From NCBI RefSeq assembly GCF_004795855.1, contig NZ_CP039252.1, forward strand, positions 3,596,001-3,660,000: a DNA stretch of 64,000 nucleotides, given 5' to 3'. Shown here one piece after another: positions 28,949-42,869 of this stretch (positions within the stretch are counted from its first letter, which is position 1; every line of letters starts with the position of its first letter). The notes under the pieces were generated by a model that saw only the letters and a program-made list of their open reading frames with translations, ran no database searches and was not told where the DNA came from. The position numbers were made by a program, and so were the translations under genes. Source of the stretch: Hydrogenophaga sp. PAMC20947 (lineage in GTDB: Bacteria > Pseudomonadota > Gammaproteobacteria > Burkholderiales > Burkholderiaceae_C).

Positions 28949-29367
28949 CGCCCAACCTGATCTGCACACCCCGGGGCGGGACTGGACCTCGGGGCTTCTG
29001 CACCACCGACGCACATGCGAGGCAAAGGCGCCAAGCTCCAGGGGCCGGCTTCGGAGCCGGCGAGGGGGTCGAACATGCAGTCTTTCTCGACCCGATTCCA
29101 GCCGCCGGCGCTCAGGTGCGCCAAGGGCTTGGGAACAAGGTAGACCTGGACTGAGTGGAAATTCAGGTCCACAGTCTTTCCGGCCCACTGGCGCAGTTTG
29201 GCGAAGATGCCGCGCAGGTTCAGGCTGTGCGCTGTGCCGGTGGCCCTTTCCAGACTGGATCGGCTCAGGGACAAAATCAAAAAATTTGAACCTCTGAACC
29301 TGTGATGCAGCCAGCGAATCAAGTTTGGGCACTGGTTTACGGGTGGGGAATCCCTTCGATTGGGCAC
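28879..29367 (-). CDS. Doubtful open frame with coding-like codon use
   Basis: An opposite-strand frame of 162 codons in the gap between the amidase gene and the hypothetical gene. Its middle part (about 28985-29265) has high third-position GC and an ordinary amino-acid mix ([20 protein letters not shown]), which suggests it is or was translated. Both ends look poor: the start overlaps the amiE 3' end, and the tail is Pro/Arg-rich and overlaps the neighbouring gene. It may be a remnant of a longer gene. No family recognised. The rest of this 388-bp gap holds nothing else I can support. Confidence 0.25.
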
Positions 29368-30359
29368 TCTTCAGTGCCGATCATGGGTCGCGTGATGGCC
29401 TCGACAGCCGACCGCGTGCCATCCGGGTCGTTCACCCAGTTCCGATAAAAATCAAAGGGGCAAACGGCGACACCTTTGTCGCCATCATGCGAGTTGATTA
29501 CACCGGTATAGCCGCGGTGCAACAGCTTGAACAAATGATTTTCACTCTGCCCGTTCTTGCGGAAGTCGCGAATCAGGCTCTTGGAGAGGGCCGCGTACTG
29601 CACACCGTTTTCCTCCTCGCCGCACTCACCCAGGGTGCGGCCATCAAAACCGATGACTGCGCTGTGACCGAAGTAGCTGTACACGCCGTCGAAGCCGGCA
29701 GCGTTGGCGACAGCCACGTAAGTGTTGTTGGCAAAGGCCATGGCTTTGCTGATCAGGATCTGCTGCTCTTTGGCCGGGTACATATAGCCTTGGCAGCGAA
29801 CAATGAGTTCTGCGCCCTTCATGGCACAGTCGCGCCAGATCTCCGGGTAATTGCCATCATCGCAAATGATGAGGCTGATCTTCAATCCCTTGGGCCCTTC
29901 GCTCACATAGGTGGTATCGCCAGGGTACCAGCCCTCAATGGGCACCCACGGGATGATCTTGCGGTATTTCTGAACGATCTCTCCCTGATCGTTCATCAAG
30001 ATCAATGTGTTGTAGGGTGCTTTATTGGGGTGCTCTTCGTGCTGCTCTCCGGTCAGCGAAAACACGCCCCAAACCTTGGCCTTGCGGCAGGCTGCAGCAA
30101 AAATTTCGGTCTCGGCACCGGGCACGGTCGTCGCTGTCTCGTACATCTCCTGGCTGTCGTACATGATGCCGTGGGTGCTGTACTCGGGGAAAATCACCAG
30201 ATCCATGCCGGGCAAACCCGACTTCATGCCAATCACCATGTCGGCAATCTTGCGTGCGTTGTCGAGCACTTCGGCTTTGGAATGCAACCGTGGCATCTTG
30301 TAATTAACCACGGCCACACCGACAGTGTCATGGCTGCTTGAAATGTCGCCGTGAATCAT
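29337..30359 (-). CDS. amiE: Aliphatic amidase
   Basis: A 340-residue nitrilase-superfamily amidase very close to Pseudomonas AmiE along its whole length (start MIHGDISSS). The catalytic triad is present at family positions: Glu59 (FPEYS), Lys134 (YRKIIPW) and Cys166 (IWRDCAMKG). It hydrolyses short aliphatic amides such as acetamide and propionamide to the acid and ammonia in the cytoplasm. It is the last gene of the amide transport/hydrolysis series on this strand, 87 bp after fmdB. The C-terminus is slightly shorter than the 346-residue Pseudomonas enzyme. A formamidase (AmiF) label is less likely but possible. Confidence 0.93.
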
Positions 30360-30446: not shown

Positions 30447-30788
30447 CTAGTGGCTGATCATCCAGGGCCGCTTGCCTGGAAAGGCCTTGGCGCCATTGGG
30501 CGCCGTCACCGTGGCCTTGCTGCGCCCGGTGCTGCAGCAGCCACAACCGGGGGGATGGCGCAATCGCTGGTAGTCGCGTGAGCTTTGGGGCTCGTGACGC
30601 GCGCGCTCGTTGGTTGCCATGGCCGTGCGGGTACTGCCATTCATGAGGGCGAGGCGGGGCGCGGTGGCGAAGACGCGTGGAGAAGCACCCGCACAGTCAG
30701 GGCATGCTGCGGGCACATTGCGCTCGGCCAAAGTCCTGAAAGCGTCAAAGCCACCGCAACTGGGGCATTCATAGTCGTAAGTAGGCAT
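30447..30788 (-). CDS. fmdB: FmdB-type zinc-ribbon protein
   Basis: A 113-residue protein with the FmdB regulatory zinc ribbon at the N-terminus (MPTYDYECPSCGGF ... CPDCAG). The longer tail has a second Cys group (GCGCC, near residue 84) and a conserved-looking C-terminus. FmdB was named in the Methylophilus formamidase cluster, where it was proposed to regulate fmdA. It lies directly between fmdA and amiE. The extra CGCC motif is not part of the minimal FmdB domain and could bind metal. Confidence 0.85.
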   Translation of the reverse strand: MPTYDYECPSCGGFDAFRTLAERNVPAACPDCAGASPRVFATAPRLALMNGSTRTAMATNERARHEPQSSRDYQRLRHPPGCGCCSTGRSKATVTAPNGAKAFPGKRPWMISH

Positions 30789-34915: not shown

Positions 34916-35830
34916 TCAACGGCGCACTTTGCTGGGGAACAAGCCCTGAGGGCGCACCATCAGGATCAGCACGATCAGGGAGAGGGTCAGCATTTTGGCC
35001 ATGGAGCCAGAAAGGAAAAATTCGGTGATCGATTGCGTCTGTGCGATGCCAAAAGCAGAAACCACCGTGCCCAGCAAGCTGGCCGCGCCGCCAAAGGTGA
35101 CCACGAGAAAGGCGTCCACGATGTAGAGCGAACCCGATGTCGGGCCCGTGGACCCGATGGTGGTGAAGGCCGCACCGGCGACGCCGGCAATACCGCAGCC
35201 AATGGCAAAGGTGAGGCGGTCGGTCTTTTTCGTATCGATACCGGTGGCATTGGCCATCACCCGGTTGCTCACCGTGGCCCGTACGCGCAGGCCCCAGCGG
35301 CTCTTGTTCATGGCGATCCATACGCCGGTCGTGACCAGGGCGGTCAACGCCAACACAAACATGCCGTTGATCGGGATGTCCAGACCCTCGGAAGGCGCCC
35401 AGGAACCCATCAACCAGTCGGGCAAGGTCGGGCTGACCTCTTTGGGACCAATGAAGGTTCGAAAACATTGCTGCATGGCCAGGCTGATGCCCCATGTCGC
35501 GAGCAGGGTGTCCAGCGGGCGCTTGTACAGGTGGCGGATCAGCCCCCATTCGACAAACCAGCCGACCACGAAAGCAAGCAGGAAAGCGGCCACGATGGCG
35601 AAGGGAAAATAGGCGGCGACAGCCTCGGGGCTGATCGCTTCGGCCAGCGTCGAGCCCAGGTAAATGGTGTACGCCCCGATGGTCATGAACTCACCATGGG
35701 CCATGTTGATCACTCCCATCTGCCCGAAAATGATGGCCAGCCCCAGCCCCATCAGGAGCAACACAGCAAACAAACTCAAGCCAGCAAAGCCTTGCATCAG
35801 GCCAATGTTGAGCAGGTCATCAAAGCTCAT
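34916..35830 (-). CDS. fmdE: Amide/urea ABC transporter permease (FmdE/LivH-like)
   Basis: A 304-residue permease with about eight helices and the LivH-type motifs MGVINMAHGEFMTIGAYT near residue 35 and GIAGVAGAAFTTIGSTGP near 215. It is much shorter than canonical UrtB (about 520 residues, with an extra periplasmic domain), which is the main reason to favour the FmdE/amide type over true urea UrtB. It lies 134 bp after the substrate-binding-protein gene and 42 bp before the second permease gene. Confidence 0.87.
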   Translation of the reverse strand: MSFDDLLNIGLMQGFAGLSLFAVLLLMGLGLAIIFGQMGVINMAHGEFMTIGAYTIYLGSTLAEAISPEAVAAYFPFAIVAAFLLAFVVGWFVEWGLIRHLYKRPLDTLLATWGISLAMQQCFRTFIGPKEVSPTLPDWLMGSWAPSEGLDIPINGMFVLALTALVTTGVWIAMNKSRWGLRVRATVSNRVMANATGIDTKKTDRLTFAIGCGIAGVAGAAFTTIGSTGPTSGSLYIVDAFLVVTFGGAASLLGTVVSAFGIAQTQSITEFFLSGSMAKMLTLSLIVLILMVRPQGLFPSKVRR

Positions 35831-35964: not shown

Positions 35965-37233
35965 TTACTGGTATCCCTTGGGGAATGGATCGGGTTTGAT
36001 CAGTTCAGGCGACTCTGAGACCACTTTGAACGTCCCGTCTGGCAACCCCATGGCGATGCGGGATTTGCTCCACAAGTGGTGGTTGGGGTCGAGCTTGACG
36101 TAGCCTTCAGGCGCTGTTTTCAATTCAATGCCCGTCTCGGAAGCGGCGACGACCTTGTCCACATCGAAGCTCTTGGCTTTCTCGACCGCTGCCTTCCACA
36201 ACCAGGGGCCCAGGTAGCCCGCCTGCGTCACGTCGCCGATGACCGCGTCTTTGCCGTACTTCGCCTTGAAGGCCGCCACAAACTTCTTGTTGTTCGCGTT
36301 GTCAAGCGACTGGAAGTACTTCATCGAAGAATAGAAGCCTTTGAAGTTCTCACCACCCACACCGGTCATCTCATCTTCGGTGACCGAGAGCGTCACCAGA
36401 AGCTGCTTGTCGCCCGTGATGCCTGCGGCCTTGAGCGCCTTGTAGAAGGCCACATTGGAGCCCCCAACCACCGCAACAAAAATGCAGTCGGGCTTTTGCA
36501 GCTTGATCTTGTTCATCAGGGACCCGAAACTGGTGCTGCCCAGCGGGTAATACTCCTCCCCGACGACTTTGCCCTTCTGGAAGCTCTCGATGTGTTTGCG
36601 CGCAATCTTCATCGAGGTGCGTGGCCAGATGTAGTCCGAACCAATGAGGAAGAAGGTCTTGGCCTTCTTCTCGGATTTGGCCCAGTCCAGGCTGTACAGA
36701 ATCTGCTGGGTGGCTTCCTGCCCCGTGTAGATCACGTTTTTGGACTGCTCCAGGCCTTCATAAAAGGTGGGGTAATAGAGCAGGCCATTTTCCCGCTCAA
36801 ACACGGGCAGAACCGCCTTGCGCGAGGCCGACGTCCAGCACCCGAAAACCGCAGCGCAATGGTCGCTGATCAACAGCTTCTTGGACTTCTCAGCAAAAGT
36901 GGGCCAGTCGGAAGCACCGTCTTCCTTGATGACCTTGATCTGGCGCCCAAGGATCCCGCCCATGGCGTTGATTTCATCAATGGCGAGTTGCTCGGCCTGA
37001 ATCGAACCGGTCTCGGAAATGGCCATGGTGCCAGTGGACGAATGCAGCTGGCCCACCGTGACTTCGGTGTCCGTGACGGCGAGCTTGGTCGTGTTAACAG
37101 CGGACGTTGGCTGGCCGAAACTCCAGGTTGGGAAGCCCACCACGGAGGCGGCGCCCAACATTTGTAAGACCCGGCGGCGGCTGGCTGCCGGGGTTTCGAG
37201 GGATACGTCATTCGGATCGGATGCGTGCTTCAT
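35965..37233 (-). CDS. fmdD: Amide/urea ABC transporter substrate-binding protein (FmdD/UrtA-like)
   Basis: A 422-residue periplasmic binding protein. A Tat-like signal (SRRRVLQMLGAASVVGF, residues 18-34) is followed by the UrtA/FmdD fold with VTVGQLHSSTGTMAISE near 60, CAAVFGCWTSASRKAVLP near 130 and GLLYYPTFYEGLEQS near 155. These match receptors for urea and short-chain amides. The ATG at 37233 has AGGAG upstream; longer in-frame starts would run into the palindrome at 37304-37349. It is the first gene of the amide series and divergent from the sensor kinase gene. Confidence 0.9.
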   Translation of the reverse strand: MKHASDPNDVSLETPAASRRRVLQMLGAASVVGFPTWSFGQPTSAVNTTKLAVTDTEVTVGQLHSSTGTMAISETGSIQAEQLAIDEINAMGGILGRQIKVIKEDGASDWPTFAEKSKKLLISDHCAAVFGCWTSASRKAVLPVFERENGLLYYPTFYEGLEQSKNVIYTGQEATQQILYSLDWAKSEKKAKTFFLIGSDYIWPRTSMKIARKHIESFQKGKVVGEEYYPLGSTSFGSLMNKIKLQKPDCIFVAVVGGSNVAFYKALKAAGITGDKQLLVTLSVTEDEMTGVGGENFKGFYSSMKYFQSLDNANNKKFVAAFKAKYGKDAVIGDVTQAGYLGPWLWKAAVEKAKSFDVDKVVAASETGIELKTAPEGYVKLDPNHHLWSKSRIAMGLPDGTFKVVSESPELIKPDPFPKGYQ

Positions 37234-37303
37234 GGGGAACTCCTGCGGGGGTTGGAACAGCGGAACCGGCTGGTGGCCGACTGATTGACAGGTTAGGGAT
37301 TTC

Positions 37304-37349
37304 CCGGGGTTCGGCCCATACGTTAAATAACGTATGGGCCGAACCCCGG
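37304..37349. promoter_or_regulatory. 46-bp perfect palindrome in the divergent control region
   Basis: Two perfectly complementary 22-bp arms (37304-37325 and 37328-37349) flank an AA centre. The inner core reads TACGTTAAATAACGTA and the outer part is a GC-rich extension. It lies about 70 bp before the binding-protein ATG on one side and 34 bp before the sensor-kinase ATG on the other. The position and symmetry suggest an operator for a dimeric regulator, most simply the LuxR-type response regulator encoded at 40796. A structured RNA on either strand is also possible. Confidence 0.75.
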
Positions 37350-37383
37350 TGAAATCGAGAACGGTTCTTGCTTGCTCTGGGGC

Positions 37384-40300
37384 ATGCACCCCACCCCCCC
37401 AGCCGCCAAACCCGTGGCCACCCAGAAAATCTTCGGATTTCGCCGCCAGTACAACTCGTGGGTGGCGGATGAGACGATGGAGGACTACGCCTTGCGTTAC
37501 ACGCCGCGCAGCTTTCGCAAATGGAGCGAGTGGCGGGTAGCCAACACAGCATTTGGATCGCTGTCTTTTCTGGCGCTGGAAGCCATTGGTGGCGCCATCG
37601 CCATGAACTACGGCTTCACCAACGCGATGCTGGCCATCCTTGTGGTGGGCCTGATCATATTTTTCACCGGCCTGCCCATCGCCTATTACGCGGCGCGCTA
37701 TGGCCTGGACATGGACCTGCTCACCCGAGGCGCTGGCTTTGGCTACCTGGGCTCAACCATCACTTCGCTGATCTACGCGGTGTTCACGTTCATTTTCTTT
37801 GCGCTCGAGGCGGCCATCATGGCGCTGGCGGTGCAGATGGCCACCGGCTGGTCTTTGCCGGCGTGTTACATCGTCTCGGCCGTGGTCATCATTCCACTGG
37901 CCATTCGTGGCATCACCTTTTTGAGCAAACTGCAGGCCTGGACCCAGCCCCTGTGGTTGTTTCTTCTGCTGCTGCCCTTCGTTTGGCTCGCCATGGATCA
38001 GCCGCAGCTCTTCCGGGACTTTGCAGGGCTGTCAGGGCTCAAATCCGGCAGCAGCGACTTCCAGCCGTTGATGTTCGGTGCAGCGGCGGCGGTGATCTTT
38101 TCACTGGTGGTGCAAATTGGCGAACAGGTCGACTTCCTGCGCTTCTTGCCCGAGAGAAATGCAGAAAACCGCGTGCGCTGGTGGTTGGCGGTACTGGTGT
38201 CTGGCCCAGGCTGGATCGTGATGGGGATGTTGAAAATGGCTGGCGGCGCCTTTTTGGCATTTGCAGCCCTGCAGTTTGAGATTGCGCCGGAACGCGCGGC
38301 CGAACCCACCCAGATGTTCCTCGCTGGCTTCGCTCAGGTGGTGGGTCACTCGGGGTTGGCCATCGCGATGACCGTGGTGTTCGTGATCATTTCCCAGATC
38401 AAGATCAACGTCACCAACGCCTACGCTGGCTCACTGGCCTGGTCCAACTTCTTCGCACGCATCACGCGCAGCCACCCTGGGCGTGTGGTCTGGCTCGTGT
38501 TCAACGTGGTCATTGCACTGCTTTTGATGTTGCTTGGCGTGTTTGGGGGCCTGGAAAAGGTGCTGGCGCTTTACAGCAATGTGGCCATCGCCTGGGTCGG
38601 CGCGCTGGTGGCCGACCTGGTGATCAACAAACCCCTGGGTCTGAGCCCCAAAGGCATCGAGTTTCGTCGAGCCCATCTGTACGACTTCAACCCGGTGGGC
38701 ATGGTCTCAATGCTGGTCGCCACGGTGGTCGCCTGTGTGGCCTACACGGGGGCGCTCGGACCTGAGGCGGCGGCTTTCGCGCCGTTCATAGCGCTCGGAC
38801 TCGCCATCTTGCTGTCGCCCTTGCTGGCATGGGCAACGCAGGGGCGCTACTACCTGGCCAGGGCCAGCACCAGCGAATGGAGCCCGGGCCAGATGGTGCG
38901 CTGCGTGGTGTGCGAAAACGCTTTCGAATCGGAAGACATGGCATCGTGCCCGGCCTACCAGGCGCCCATTTGTTCGCTGTGCTGCTCGCTGGAATCGCGG
39001 TGCCATGATCGCTGCAAAACCAACTCCCGGGCTGTCGATCAATTGCGCGGATGGCTGGTCGCCTGGCTGCCGAACCGCATCGCAGCCCGCGTCAATTTTC
39101 GCGTGGGACACTACCTGCTGGTGTTCATATCCATCGGCTCGATCGTGGCACTGCTGATGGGGATGGTGTATGTGCAAGAGAGTCTTCAGACGCCGGGCGA
39201 AGTACTCCACACCCCTTTTCTGAAAATCTTCGCCTTGCTGCTGGTTCTGGCGGCTGTGTGCGCCTGGTGGGTGGTGCTCACCACCGACAGTCGGCGCATG
39301 GCGCAGGACGAGTCTGAGCGGCAAACCCAATTGCTGATGCTGGAAATCGACGCCCACAAACACACCGACGCCGAACTGCAGGCGGCCCGGGACCGAGCGG
39401 AATCCGCAAGCCAGGCCAAGACACGGTATGTGGCCGGCATGACACATGAGCTGCGCACGCCCCTGACCAGCATCCTGGGCTATGCACAGATTCTGCTCAA
39501 GAGCGACGACATCTCCATCTGGACGCGCGAGAGGATCGCCACCATGCAGCGTTCCGGGCAGCACATGCACGCGCTCATCGACGGTTCGCTCGATCTCGCG
39601 CGCATCGAGGCCGGCCGCCTGAAGCTGGACACGGCGCCCATGCCTTTCGGACCCTTCTTGCAAGACATGGAACGCATGATTCGGCCCCAGGCCGAGGCCA
39701 AAAACTTGCGCTTCGTGTTGCGCCACCAGGGCGAAATGCCCAACTGGATTCGCGGCGATGCCAAGCGGCTTCGCCAAATCTTGATCAACCTGCTGAGCAA
39801 CGCCGTGCGCTTTACCGAGCGAGGCGAAGTTCGATTGATTTTCGATTTTCGACAACAGGTCACCCGCATCGACGTGGAAGACACCGGCATCGGGATTGCC
39901 GAGCAGGATCAAAAGCGCATTTTTCTGCCTTTTGAGCGCGGCAGCGGCGGCCGTCGCGCCACGAGCGCAGGAACCGGATTGGGCCTGACGATCACCCATT
40001 TGCTCACCGACATGATGGGCGGCGAATTGACCTTGCGCAGCCTCACGGGCGAAGGATCCACGTTCAGCCTGCGCCTCTATTTGCCCAGCGTCGAACCCGA
40101 CCCAGAAAGACAAGGCCTTCCGCTGCTCGATCTGCACAGCGTGACAGGGCACGCTGGACCACCCAGGCGAATCCTGGTGGTGGACGATCAAGCGGTACAC
40201 CGGCAATTGTTGGCCGGTTTGTTGGTGCCACTGGGGTTTGTGATCGAGGAAGCGGCCAGCGGCTTGGAGTGCCTGGAAATTCTGGAACGGCAATTGCCTG

Positions 40301-40812
40301 ACCTGCTGTTGCTCGACATCACCATGGACGGACTTGATGGCTGGCAAACTGCGCAAGCCGTTCGAGAGCATGTAACGCCACACCGGCTGCCGATTGTTTT
40401 CGTTTCGGCCAACCAATTTGACAACCAGCCCGAGCGCCTGCTGGCTCAGGGCTGCCAGGGTTTCGTGGGAAAGCCCCTGATGGAGTCCGAGTTGCTCGAA
40501 ACACTCCGGCGCACGCTCGATCTGACATGGATCCGGGCTCTGCCAGAAACAACCGCACATGAACAGGCGGCCGCCGAGGCCCATGCACCCAGCGTATTGC
40601 CCGACGACCTTCGGGATGAGCTCAGAAGCCTGGCACACAAGGGCCAGGTTTCGGGTTTGCGCAAGCGGTTGCAGGATGCCGTGGTCCAGTTCCCCGACCA
40701 CGCCGGCACGCTCAGCATACTGAAAGCTCACGCCGACTCCCTGGATTTCCAGCAGATTCTCGCCCTTCTAATCGACTCAACTGAGCCCGCCAACCATGTC
40801 GACACCGCTTGA
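37384..40812 (+). CDS. NCS1-permease/histidine kinase/receiver fusion sensor
   Basis: A protein of about 1,142 residues. Residues about 15-495 form an NCS1 (purine-cytosine/allantoin permease-like) transporter with some eleven helices. A Cys-rich module (eight Cys, residues 507-544), two more TM helices near 575-640 and a short coiled coil follow. Next is a HisKA/HATPase kinase with His688 (HELRTPL), N-box LINLLSNAVRF, G1 DTGIGI and G2 GTGLGLTI. A receiver with Asp978 (LLDITMDGLDGW) and a helical tail end the protein. It probably senses, and may transport, a nitrogen compound and signals to the overlapping response-regulator gene. An in-frame TTG at 37372 is a less likely start. Confidence 0.9.
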   Translation: MHPTPPAAKPVATQKIFGFRRQYNSWVADETMEDYALRYTPRSFRKWSEWRVANTAFGSLSFLALEAIGGAIAMNYGFTNAMLAILVVGLIIFFTGLPIAYYAARYGLDMDLLTRGAGFGYLGSTITSLIYAVFTFIFFALEAAIMALAVQMATGWSLPACYIVSAVVIIPLAIRGITFLSKLQAWTQPLWLFLLLLPFVWLAMDQPQLFRDFAGLSGLKSGSSDFQPLMFGAAAAVIFSLVVQIGEQVDFLRFLPERNAENRVRWWLAVLVSGPGWIVMGMLKMAGGAFLAFAALQFEIAPERAAEPTQMFLAGFAQVVGHSGLAIAMTVVFVIISQIKINVTNAYAGSLAWSNFFARITRSHPGRVVWLVFNVVIALLLMLLGVFGGLEKVLALYSNVAIAWVGALVADLVINKPLGLSPKGIEFRRAHLYDFNPVGMVSMLVATVVACVAYTGALGPEAAAFAPFIALGLAILLSPLLAWATQGRYYLARASTSEWSPGQMVRCVVCENAFESEDMASCPAYQAPICSLCCSLESRCHDRCKTNSRAVDQLRGWLVAWLPNRIAARVNFRVGHYLLVFISIGSIVALLMGMVYVQESLQTPGEVLHTPFLKIFALLLVLAAVCAWWVVLTTDSRRMAQDESERQTQLLMLEIDAHKHTDAELQAARDRAESASQAKTRYVAGMTHELRTPLTSILGYAQILLKSDDISIWTRERIATMQRSGQHMHALIDGSLDLARIEAGRLKLDTAPMPFGPFLQDMERMIRPQAEAKNLRFVLRHQGEMPNWIRGDAKRLRQILINLLSNAVRFTERGEVRLIFDFRQQVTRIDVEDTGIGIAEQDQKRIFLPFERGSGGRRATSAGTGLGLTITHLLTDMMGGELTLRSLTGEGSTFSLRLYLPSVEPDPERQGLPLLDLHSVTGHAGPPRRILVVDDQAVHRQLLAGLLVPLGFVIEEAASGLECLEILERQLPDLLLLDITMDGLDGWQTAQAVREHVTPHRLPIVFVSANQFDNQPERLLAQGCQGFVGKPLMESELLETLRRTLDLTWIRALPETTAHEQAAAEAHAPSVLPDDLRDELRSLAHKGQVSGLRKRLQDAVVQFPDHAGTLSILKAHADSLDFQQILALLIDSTEPANHVDTA

Positions 40813-41707
40813 ACCCGCCCCTTTTGAGGCCATGCAACCCGTCATCCTGGTGGTGGAGGATGCACCCGATACCTTGCGCCTGCTGTGTGACGCACTGATC
40901 ACAGAGGGCTACGAGGTCGTGGCGGCGCGCGACGCAGCCGAAGCGATTGAGCGCCTGGAGGTCACCGTCCCTGACGGGGTTCTGCTTGACGCCGTGATGC
41001 CCGGGCTCGATGGTTTTGGCTTGTGCCAAAGAATCAAAGCCACGCCAGCATGGTCCCATGTACCGGTGCTGTTCATGACGGGCCTGTCTGACACCGATCA
41101 GATCATTCGCGGCTTTGCGTCAGGCGCGGTGGACTATGTGGTCAAACCTTTGCGCCTGCCCGAAGTGATGGCACGGCTGGCGACGCATGTGCGCAATGCG
41201 CGGGTGGCACGGCTGGCACAGGCCGCGGTGGATGTGGCGGGCATGGGCACCGTTCTGCTTGACACCTTGGGTCGTCCTGCATGGCTTTCGCCCCAGGTCT
41301 CTGAATGGCTGGATCAGGCATTCGGAACGGGTGTCCATGAGCGCAAGGCCGCGCAACAGTGGCTGACCGAGGCGCGCCAGGGTGGAGAGGCCAGCGTGCC
41401 GATGGGGTTGAACGGGCGTTTGGTGGCCCGGCATATTGGCCAAGGCGGTTTGGGCGAATCCATGTTGTTGCTGGCGCAAACCCAGTCCGACAACGCAGCC
41501 ATCCAGCGGTTGCGGGAGATCGCGCTCACGCCCAGGGAGACCGAGGTGCTGTCGTGGTTGGCCAAGGGAAAAACCAATCGCGACATCGCTGACATCCTGG
41601 GCATGAGCCACCGGACGGTCAACAAACATCTGGAACACGTTTTTGAGAAACTCGGCGTTGAAACGCGGTCGGCTGCGGCGGCGATCGCAGGCAAGCTGCT
41701 CCCTTAA
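40796..41707 (+). CDS. LuxR-family response regulator
   Basis: A 303-residue regulator. It has an N-terminal receiver with the acidic pair in VVEDA, phosphoacceptor Asp65 (LLDAVMPGLDGF), and Lys in VVKPLRLPE. A middle PAS-like segment of about 100 residues (GMGTVLLDTLGRPAWLSPQV) follows, then a C-terminal LuxR/NarL HTH (LTPRETEVLSWLAKGKTNRDI, RTVNKHLEHVFEKLGVETR). It starts 17 bp inside the 3' end of the kinase gene, so the two are translationally coupled partners. Likely target: the divergent amide operon through the palindrome at 37304-37349. The stop overlaps the convergent RlmN-like gene by 4 bp. Confidence 0.9.
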   Translation: MSTPLEPAPFEAMQPVILVVEDAPDTLRLLCDALITEGYEVVAARDAAEAIERLEVTVPDGVLLDAVMPGLDGFGLCQRIKATPAWSHVPVLFMTGLSDTDQIIRGFASGAVDYVVKPLRLPEVMARLATHVRNARVARLAQAAVDVAGMGTVLLDTLGRPAWLSPQVSEWLDQAFGTGVHERKAAQQWLTEARQGGEASVPMGLNGRLVARHIGQGGLGESMLLLAQTQSDNAAIQRLREIALTPRETEVLSWLAKGKTNRDIADILGMSHRTVNKHLEHVFEKLGVETRSAAAAIAGKLLP

Positions 41708-42744
41708 GAACGATCGATCTGAATCGCGATGGACTTCTTGTGCAGCGGCAGCGCTGCCCGCGCCCGAAGCTGCCCGCAACCGCCGTCCACATCCTGTCCG
41801 GCCGACTGGCGCAGCTTGGTGAGGACGCCGCGTTGGTGCAAGCGGCGCGCGATGCCGGCGGCCTTCTCCCCGCTGGGTCGTTGGAAAGGCAGCTCGGGCA
41901 CGGCGTTGTAGGGGATCATGTTGAGAATGGCGTATTTGCCCGTCAGCAGCCGCACGATACCCTCGATCTCGTCGTCGCCATCGTTGATGCCCTCCATCAG
42001 CGTCCACTGGTACTGGATGGGGTAATCGGTCGCGCGTGCGTAGGCTTCGCCCAGCTCAACCAGGGCTTCTGGCGTCAAGCGCGGCGCGCGCGGCAGCAGT
42101 TTTTCGCGCAGGTCGGCTTTGGTGGTGTGCAGGGAAATCGCCAGTGCCGGCTTGACGCGCCCGGCCGGCAAGGCTTCAAAAACCCGCGCATCGCCCACGG
42201 TGGAAAACACCAGGCTCTTGTGGCCGATGTTGCCCACCGTGCCCAGCAGGTCGATGGCCTCCATGACGTTGTCCAGGTTGTGCGCGGGTTCGCCCATGCC
42301 CATGAAGACCACCTTCTTCACCGGTCGCATGCGGCGCGCCAGCGCCACCTGGGCCACAATTTCGGCGCTGCCCACCTGGCGAATCAGGCCGGTGGTCCCG
42401 GTCATGCAAAACACACAGCCCACCGCGCAGCCCACCTGGGTTGACACACACAGACCGCCCCTGGGCAGCAGCACGCTCTCTACCATCTGCCCGTCGCCCA
42501 GCTTCACCAACAGGCGCGACGAGCCGTCCTCACCAGGATGTTCGCTGTGCAGTGCGCCGAGGGCTGCCAGCTCGGCTTCAACTTCCGGCATCGCGTTCAC
42601 CAGGGTGTGGGGCAGGAAATGCTCAAGCTCGCGCTGGCCGCTGCGCTGGGGCAGGGCCAGACTCCACAGGCGCAGAACACGCTGCTGGTGGCGGGGGTTG
42701 GCGCCGAGCACGGCCAAGCGCTCGCGCAGGGATGAAAGGCGCAT
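41704..42744 (-). CDS. RlmN/Cfr-family radical SAM RNA methyltransferase-like protein
   Basis: A 346-residue radical SAM enzyme with the cluster motif CAVGCVFCMTG near residue 105, GMGEPAHNLDNV near 150, and the C-terminal methyl-carrier Cys in DVDGGCGQL near 325. These match RlmN/Cfr, which methylate A2503 of 23S rRNA (RlmN also acts on tRNA). It differs from the standard RlmN N-terminus and may be the paralogue found in several Burkholderiales beside a canonical rlmN elsewhere. The ATG at 42744 was chosen because the earlier in-frame region is not conserved-looking. Confidence 0.85.
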   Translation of the reverse strand: MRLSSLRERLAVLGANPRHQQRVLRLWSLALPQRSGQRELEHFLPHTLVNAMPEVEAELAALGALHSEHPGEDGSSRLLVKLGDGQMVESVLLPRGGLCVSTQVGCAVGCVFCMTGTTGLIRQVGSAEIVAQVALARRMRPVKKVVFMGMGEPAHNLDNVMEAIDLLGTVGNIGHKSLVFSTVGDARVFEALPAGRVKPALAISLHTTKADLREKLLPRAPRLTPEALVELGEAYARATDYPIQYQWTLMEGINDGDDEIEGIVRLLTGKYAILNMIPYNAVPELPFQRPSGEKAAGIARRLHQRGVLTKLRQSAGQDVDGGCGQLRARAALPLHKKSIAIQIDRS

Positions 42745-42869
42745 AGGGAGGATTGTCGCCCCCCTTCGGGGATCAAAGATCGGTCGGGCCCGGGGGTTGG
42801 TTGAGAACCGCCCTTCGCTCACAGGGTGTACTTCATCGGCAGACAATGTGCTCCCTGAGGAGCGCCCAC

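What the first reader, a model, noticed from the sequence alone, without database searches (positions are those of the whole stretch)
37384..41707. Transporter-kinase-receiver fusion paired with a LuxR regulator beside an amide operon
Seen: one frame joins a full NCS1-like permease, a Cys-rich module, a HisKA/HATPase kinase and a receiver, and a LuxR-type regulator overlaps its end by 17 bp. Known: transporter-sensor fusions exist (CbrA joins an SLC5-type transporter to a kinase). Inferred: the permease domain reads out amides, urea or a related nitrogen compound and controls the divergent import and hydrolysis operon. This is the best candidate for an under-described system in the window.
Basis: partly seen in the sequence, partly recalled or inferred. 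Interest (0 to 1): 0.8.

Follow-up and report, generated by a model that had tools for sequence, protein, structure and literature searches.

The report
Urea/amide-sensing transporter–kinase switch
A bacterial sensor built by fusing a nucleobase-permease-like membrane protein to a signalling kinase sits, in many bacteria, beside genes for taking up and breaking down urea or formamide, and probably uses the transporter part to detect those compounds and switch the genes on.

Summary
Confirmed. One 1,142-aa frame (37384-40812) joins an NCS1-fold permease, an eight-cysteine module, two further membrane helices, a complete histidine kinase and a receiver; a LuxR-type response regulator overlaps its end by 17 bp. 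It diverges from urtABCDE-fmdA-fmdB-amiE.

Pfam and sequence searches of the PDB miss the permease domain, but its AlphaFold model matches CodB and Mhp1 best. In an even sample of 398 genomes of the phylum, 52 carry the domain (58 copies, all in frames of 894 aa or more). Of these, 56 of 58 lie beside formamidase/short-type urt, urease or canonical urt genes; the other two lie on short contigs. Formamidase occurs in 40 of the 398 genomes, and 39 of those also carry the fusion.

New here: a conserved 16-bp palindrome (TACGTCA-N2-TGACGTA) in the divergent promoter. It varies with the regulator's recognition helix and recurs upstream of fmdA. The same genome holds a paralogue facing urease genes.

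Best reading: a urea/short-amide transceptor kinase. It works like CbrA/CrbS, but with an NCS1-type sensor and a cysteine module instead of SLC5-STAC. Ligand, phosphotransfer and DNA binding are inferred, not shown. In Cyanobacteria the neighbourhood link is mostly lost.

The parts
37384..40812 (+). permease-Cys-2TM-HisKA-HATPase-receiver fusion (1142 aa)
   Evidence: open frame; Pfam domains; the 120 listed homologues (the window's own included) carry the same three signalling domains
37435..38853 (+). NCS1-fold permease domain, residues 18-490
38893..39027 (+). eight-Cys module, residues 504-548
   Evidence: all eight Cys invariant in 61 of 61 rows; Foldseek list made up mostly of treble-clef zinc domains, best E only 0.18
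39100..39303 (+). two further, probably membrane-spanning, helices before the kinase, residues about 573-640
   Evidence: helices 573-602 and 609-679 in the model; median identity 42%; membrane assignment read from the sequence
39415..39615 (+). HisKA, phospho-acceptor His688
   Evidence: His in 122 of 122 aligned frames
39754..40083 (+). HATPase_c
   Evidence: N802, N806, D833, G835, G837, G863, G865, G867 in 122 of 122
40171..40506 (+). C-terminal receiver of the hybrid kinase
   Evidence: D978 and K1030 in 122 of 122
40796..41707 (+). response regulator: receiver, unassigned middle (no Pfam hit at E<=10), LuxR/GerE HTH
   Evidence: adjacent LuxR-type regulator in 56 of 58 sample copies (55, plus L125 seen)
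37304..37349 (.). 46-bp perfect palindrome between urtA and the kinase
   Evidence: the surrounding 76 nt fold at -54.7 kcal/mol as RNA, z -10.8
37319..37334 (.). putative operator core TACGTTA-AA-TAACGTA
   Evidence: matches the conserved TACGTCA-N2-TGACGTA at 12 of 14; the only site of TACGTYANNTRACGTA in the 4.85-Mb genome at <=1 mismatch, while the backward-read control pattern has 2
35965..37233 (-). urtA-type substrate-binding protein
   Evidence: TIGR03407 above cut-off; start codon as CAT at 37231-37233
34916..35830 (-). urtB, short form (304 aa)
   Evidence: TIGR03409
33674..34873 (-). urtC
   Evidence: TIGR03408
32909..33652 (-). urtD
   Evidence: TIGR03411
32190..32880 (-). urtE (start approximate)
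   Evidence: TIGR03410
30909..32135 (-). fmdA formamidase
   Evidence: NF045496, 748 bits against cut-off 500
30447..30788 (-). fmdB-like zinc-ribbon protein
   Evidence: PF09723, E 1e-11; the name FmdB is by analogy
29337..30359 (-). amiE aliphatic amidase
   Evidence: NF009802, 715 bits against cut-off 427

Best explanation
A transceptor two-component system for urea and short-chain amides. The NCS1-fold domain binds the small amide (inferred). Its conformational change passes through the Cys module and the 2-TM/coiled-coil segment to the HisKA-HATPase kinase (inferred). The kinase phosphorylates the LuxR-type regulator encoded by the overlapping gene (inferred from overlap and adjacency; the tail has no conserved His, so no HPt step is evident). 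The regulator, presumably as a dimer, binds the palindrome TACGTCA-N2-TGACGTA in the shared divergent promoter and activates urtABCDE-fmdA-fmdB-amiE (palindrome shown by comparative genomics; binding and activation inferred). In the urease-linked sister lineage the same sensor type faces urease genes behind sigma-54-like promoters, so there it probably works together with general nitrogen control.
For: Linkage: 56 of 58 even-sample copies beside urea/amide genes, the 2 others on short contigs; 39 of 40 FmdA genomes carry the fusion. The paralogue in the same genome faces urease genes. Sensor: NCS1 fold; permease better conserved than the kinase; polar core residues invariant in 61 of 61 rows that include amide-linked, urea-linked and cyanobacterial copies. 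Kinase residues intact in 122 of 122 frames. Operator: >=12 of 14 matches in 78 of 117 intergenics against 2 of 585 shuffles; TACG-N8-CGTA in 93 of 108 non-urease intergenics, with 147 occurrences in 2.55 Mb of loci against 113 counted in the 50 kb of intergenics. The half-site differs with the recognition helix: mostly TACGTCA with N-H helices (56 of 57 have the frame), TACGCAA/CGA with D-Q helices (13 of 16), none with K-R (0 of 7). In 17 other genomes 20 of 23 pattern sites lie in the fusion promoter (13) or just upstream of fmdA (7). Sensor swap: in L163 and L170 the same permease and Cys module sits on another kinase, still near fmdA.
Against: No biochemical or genetic test exists here. 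In Cyanobacteria (12 of 244 genomes) the neighbourhood is lost: of the 11 fetched sample loci and L088 none shows urt or amidase genes, apart from one 25%-identity ABC-ATPase hit in L208, and several loci are short; only L067/L219, outside the sample, has them. No AmiE over the cut-off occurs in those 12 genomes, though UrtA is in 11 of 12 against 74 of 232 others. Four of 43 fmdA copies are not near a fusion, and the second fmdA of G196 has no operator match. The frame TACG-N8-CGTA is absent in all 9 urease-linked promoters and found in only 3 of 10 with N-Q helices. Whole-genome pattern counts do not exceed the backward-read control in the window genome (1 against 2), and in 17 genomes the control has 12 forward matches in 6 genomes against 23; the case rests on where the sites lie. 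Helix classes are also taxonomic classes. No sigma-70 site was found in the window promoter.
Confidence: 0.72

Rival explanations
1. The permease mainly transports urea or amides and the kinase responds to flux or cytosolic nitrogen, so it is an uptake system with a built-in flow meter.
For: NCS1 transporters are symporters (established knowledge); CbrA transports histidine (PMC7918813, passages); permease core strictly conserved.
Against: The operon already encodes an ABC uptake system; in the even sample all 58 copies are in frames of 894 aa or more, although the protein search also lists shorter entries that were not all explained.
Confidence: 0.2
2. The permease is a membrane anchor; the signal is metal, redox or nitrogen status read by the invariant Cys module or the 2-TM segment.
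For: Eight Cys invariant in 61 of 61 rows; Foldseek list mostly of zinc domains, though no significant hit.
Against: The permease is more conserved than the kinase and its core polar residues are invariant; a metal or redox signal does not explain the near-exclusive linkage to urea/amide genes in the sample.
Confidence: 0.12
3. The ligand is an NCS1-like nucleobase, hydantoin or allantoin, whose breakdown yields urea.
For: Closest folds are CodB (cytosine) and Mhp1 (hydantoin).
Against: Neighbourhoods hold urea/amide genes in 56 of 58 sample copies, although nucleobase-catabolism genes were not searched for; formamidase and amiE do not act on purines (established knowledge).
Confidence: 0.06
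4. The palindrome is the site of a different regulator and the LuxR regulator acts elsewhere.
For: No binding data; the palindrome is missing in urease-linked loci that have the same regulator family, and helix classes follow taxonomy.
Against: The half-site differs with this regulator's recognition helix; 20 of 23 sites in 17 genomes sit in the shared promoter or before fmdA.
Confidence: 0.12

Closest known systems
SLC5-STAC histidine kinases: CbrA/CbrB, CrbS/CrbR, RpuS/RpuR (PMC13022988, PMC7918813 and PMC5715377, passages; PMC9100948, start of abstract in a search listing)
   Same: LeuT-fold transporter fused to a histidine kinase; CrbS is also a hybrid kinase with a LuxR-family partner that needs an inverted repeat; sensor and regulated pathway share a nutrient
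   Different: NCS1 rather than SLC5 fold; an eight-Cys module plus two helices stand where STAC stands; the pathway is urea/short amides; different palindrome
Amt-type ammonium sensor kinase of Candidatus Kuenenia (PMC5764959, start of abstract in a search listing)
   Same: transporter domain fused to a histidine kinase for a nitrogen compound
   Different: unrelated transporter fold (recalled) and ligand
NCS1 transporters CodB and Mhp1
   Same: fold, 15-19% identity
   Different: not recognised by PF02133; in the even sample only in long, kinase-sized frames
fmdCABDEF operon of Methylophilus methylotrophus, induced by formamide and urea (PMC10781810, passages)
   Same: formamidase, FmdB and amide/urea ABC transporter genes
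   Different: the passages seen name a putative positive regulator but no kinase (no occurrence of 'histidine kinase' or 'two-component' in that text)
AmiC/AmiR control of amiE (PMC13209695, passages)
   Same: amide-inducible amidase control
   Different: ligand-binding AmiC plus antiterminator AmiR; the P. veronii chromosomal fmd-urt cluster lacks amiC and amiR (same paper)

Membership tests
SLC5-STAC transceptor kinases | SLC5 (SSS) transporter domain | tested here: not met
SLC5-STAC transceptor kinases | STAC domain between transporter and kinase | tested here: inconclusive
   the scan of residues 501-672 gave only two insignificant families, neither STAC, but whether the library holds a STAC model was not checked; the place is taken by an eight-Cys module
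SLC5-STAC transceptor kinases | complete HisKA-HATPase kinase fused C-terminally | tested here: met
SLC5-STAC transceptor kinases | transport activity of the fused domain (shown for CbrA) | not testable with these tools
   needs uptake assays
NCS1 transporter family | NCS1 fold | tested here: met
NCS1 transporter family | match to PF02133 (Transp_cyt_pur) | tested here: not met
   no match for the protein or anywhere in the genome; the control rings in 4 of 14 reference genomes
NCS1 transporter family | sequence homology to a known member | tested here: inconclusive
   hhalign to CodB: E 4.7e-4 but probability 32.6 over 203 columns
Hybrid histidine kinase with LuxR/NarL-type response regulator | receiver in the kinase and separate receiver-GerE partner gene | tested here: met
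   partner adjacent in 56 of 58 sample copies
fmd/urt short-chain amide operon | formamidase FmdA with urtABCDE-type ABC genes | tested here: met

The most novel reading that the evidence does not exclude
A so far unnamed, widespread class of urea/amide transceptors: an NCS1-fold permease turned into a dedicated sensor (in the even sample always part of a long frame), coupled through an invariant eight-Cys, probably metal-binding, module, and plugged by evolution into at least three outputs (hybrid kinase with LuxR regulator in most sampled genomes of the window's phylum; a non-hybrid kinase near an OmpR-type regulator in L163/L170; another non-hybrid kinase in Cyanobacteria). One pocket serves urea-linked and amide-linked pathways.
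Probability: 0.55. Interest if true: 0.75.

Novelty: new variant of a known kind. Interest (0 to 1): 0.63.

Why it matters
How bacteria sense environmental urea and short amides to induce urease, urea uptake and formamidase is defined for only a few systems (general knowledge). This gives a concrete sensor, its partner and a predicted operator, present in 52 of 398 sampled genomes of the phylum, that can be tested in laboratory strains. It also extends transporter-kinase transceptors to the NCS1 fold, with a coupling module (eight Cys) unlike STAC, which bears on how transporter movements reach kinases. The domain matches no Pfam model; in databases the proteins are called hybrid kinase or ATP-binding protein, and in JGI entries also 'purine-cytosine permease-like', so the permease part is already named there but its role is not.

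Tried and rejected
Pfam, NCBIfam and PDB sequence searches of the permease gave nothing for that part; PF02133 has no member in this genome. HHalign to E. coli CodB was too weak to map ligand residues, so no ligand-contact claim is made. The Cys module alone folded with moderate confidence (pLDDT 75.7) and no PDB hit reached E 0.001, so zinc binding is only a guess. A sigma-70 promoter in the window intergenic was not found. Sigma-54-like sites are clear for urease-linked loci (9 of 9 on both strands, 1 of 90 mononucleotide shuffles on each) but weaker for the kinase promoter of urt-linked loci (40 of 96 against 28 of 960 shuffles), absent for the canonical-urt group on that strand (0 of 11), and the window itself has none near that score. 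The three operator-pattern sites away from fusion and fmdA promoters (G246, G207, G385) lie inside long open frames and look like chance. Amide linkage in Cyanobacteria was looked for and not found. Positions that separate amide- from urea-linked permeases were listed but give no clear pocket change. Free-standing copies are not excluded: the search with the permease alone listed shorter proteins; of ten read, several run into the Cys module and then lose the family sequence or stop, three end at or before the permease end, and one (P0133) joins the 2-TM part directly to a regulator; whether these are cut contigs, frame breaks or real was not resolved. Set aside as not about this protein: the Hik28 paper and a P. 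fluorescens evolution paper. No paper seen describes this fusion, judging by the listings and the passages read; PMC13296017 (passages) does note a two-component hybrid kinase and LuxR regulator beside a second urtABCDE in Ectopseudomonas guguanensis, without its architecture. One paper search, one homology search and one genome search were left unused.
Full report
OBSERVATION. The frame 37384-40812 and the overlapping regulator 40796-41707 are as described. HisKA, HATPase and receiver domains are above Pfam cut-offs. The divergent operon is urtABCDE-fmdA-fmdB-amiE: UrtA-E, FmdA and AmiE score above NCBIfam cut-offs, and a zinc-ribbon FmdB-like gene lies between fmdA and amiE. The nearest named relatives are Hydrogenophaga and Rhodoferax assemblies, so the window is probably from that part of the Comamonadaceae.

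DISTRIBUTION AND NEIGHBOURS. In an even sample of 398 genomes of the phylum, 52 carry the permease domain at E<=1e-60, 58 copies, in open frames of 894-1365 aa. Reading up to 19 kb around the copies: 38 of 58 face formamidase/short-type urt genes, 11 canonical urea ABC genes (long UrtB), mostly with urease genes, 7 urease; 2 of 58 have no call, both on short contigs (for one of these, L144, a urtA start is seen at the contig end). The labels are coarse: L129, counted as urease, also has short-type urtABCDE and an fmdA 11.7 kb away. Over all 139 copies examined, including those in the 80 closest loci (not an unbiased set): 103 formamidase/urt type, 15 canonical urt, 10 urease, 2 both, 1 amiE alone, 8 none. 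FmdA (NF045496) occurs in 40 of the same 398 genomes; 39 of the 40 have the fusion, 13 genomes have the fusion without FmdA, and 39 of 43 fmdA copies lie within 15 kb of a fusion (Fisher p 1.4e-41, not corrected for relatedness). The window genome has a second copy at C1:4778819-4782166 (58% identity in the permease), followed by its own LuxR-type regulator and divergent from ureABC-EFG.

OUTPUT SWAPS. L163 and L170 keep the permease, Cys module and 2-TM part, but the kinase is short and non-hybrid and lies near a separate receiver-kinase gene and an OmpR-like regulator (read by eye from the translations, no family scan), still near fmdA. In 12 of 244 Cyanobacteria the domain sits in frames of 963-1072 aa; three translations read out end in another non-hybrid kinase. 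There the neighbourhood link is lost: of the 11 fetched sample loci (four of them under 15 kb) and L088, none shows urt or amidase genes beyond one 25%-identity ABC-ATPase hit in L208; only L067/L219 (not in the sample) has urt and amiE. AmiE over its cut-off occurs in 2 of 244 genomes, neither with a fusion; one fusion genome, G407, has a match below the cut-off. UrtA is in 11 of 12 fusion genomes against 74 of 232 others (p 5e-5, uncorrected). A quick tree of 124 permease domains puts all 10 rows labelled urease, with 4 of 15 canonical-urt rows, in one group of 17 (SH-aLRT 99), while the other canonical-urt rows lie elsewhere, 10 of them inside a mostly formamidase-type group. So the sensor seems to have changed between urea and amide contexts more than once while its invariant core stayed the same.

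OPERATOR. The intergenic region of the window (37234-37383) holds a 46-bp perfect palindrome centred on TACGTTA-AA-TAACGTA. In relatives the core is TACGTCA-N2-TGACGTA, nearly always with a 2-base spacer: 78 of 117 divergent intergenics match at 12 or more of 14 positions, against 2 of 585 dinucleotide shuffles. The looser frame TACG-N8-CGTA occurs in 93 of 108 non-urease intergenics, 0 of 9 urease intergenics, and 31 of 40 non-urease intergenics of the even sample; it has 147 occurrences in 2.55 Mb of loci and 113 in the 50 kb of intergenics. In the window genome there is one site at up to one mismatch, no more than the backward-read control (2); in 17 other genomes there are 23 sites in 16 genomes, against 12 control matches (forward strand) in 6 genomes. 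Counts alone therefore prove little, but the places do: 13 of the 23 lie within 280 bp upstream of a fusion and 7 within 125 bp upstream of fmdA (G387, G054, G356, G146, G193, G314, G174); 3 lie elsewhere. For 102 of the 117 intergenics the adjacent regulator could be classed by two recognition-helix residues: N-H 56 of 57 with the frame, half-site mostly TACGTCA (90 of 144 half-sites); D-Q (Bradyrhizobium type) 13 of 16, half-site TACGCAA or TACGCGA; N-Q 3 of 10; K-R (urease-linked) 0 of 7; the other classes have 1 or 2 members each. This covariation is what a regulator-operator pair predicts, but helix classes follow taxonomy, so it is support, not proof. The 9 urease-linked intergenics instead carry two divergent sigma-54-like sites each (9 of 9 on both strands, against 1 of 90 mononucleotide shuffles per strand).

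MECHANISM. Shown by computation: fold, intact catalytic residues, gene linkage, conserved palindrome. Inferred: ligand (urea and short amides), signal path through the Cys/2-TM part, phosphotransfer to the LuxR partner, activation at the palindrome. Support from print: the M. [quoted passage not shown] veronii Yu15, with a chromosomal amiE-fmdA-fmdB-urtABCDE cluster and no amiC/amiR there, uses formamide and acetamide as sole nitrogen sources, though it also has a plasmid acetamidase operon (PMC13209695, passages); neither passage tests the kinase.

COMPARISON. It works like the SLC5-STAC kinases. CrbS/CrbR is the nearest in logic: hybrid kinase, LuxR-family partner, imperfect inverted repeat needed for activation (PMC5715377, passages); CbrA has transport activity and a STAC linker (PMC13022988 and PMC7918813, passages). 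It is not a member: its transporter is of the NCS1 fold, not SLC5, and the linker differs. One report that mentions the adjacency does so only as annotation (PMC13296017, passages), and JGI names already include 'purine-cytosine permease-like'. Hence: new variant of a known kind.

Noticed in passing
window 37304-37349: The 46-bp palindrome (22-bp arms) is far longer than the conserved 16-bp core; among the other 116 intergenics the longest perfect arms listed are 12 bp. How it arose is unexplained.
   Followed up: partly
L009 12757-17492 (G000:C1, about 4778756-4783491): Paralogous fusion and LuxR-type regulator divergent from ureABC-EFG, with sigma-54-like sites facing both ways in the shared promoter.
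   Followed up: yes
L163 6499-9156 and L170 5663-8347: Same permease, Cys and 2-TM sensor on a different non-hybrid kinase, with a separate receiver-kinase gene and an OmpR-like regulator, near fmdA.
   Followed up: partly
Cyanobacterial genomes, e.g. G438:C174:2918-3988, G556:C55:138681-139745, G571:C9:73322-74380: UrtA-like binding domains lie inside open frames of about 800-1,612 aa, so they may be fused to signalling domains; possible second kind of urea receptor.
   Followed up: no
L022 10001-14300 and 16849-21248: A Hylemonella contig carries both fusion lineages (amide type and urease type) a few kb apart.
   Followed up: no
window 41704-41707: The regulator gene and the gene on the other strand (41704-42846, taken for rlmN by eye) end tail to tail with a 4-bp overlap.
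   Followed up: no
protein P0133 (871 aa): A metagenome protein joins the permease, Cys and 2-TM part directly to a receiver-LuxR regulator without a kinase; deletion, assembly error or real one-protein system is open.
   Followed up: no
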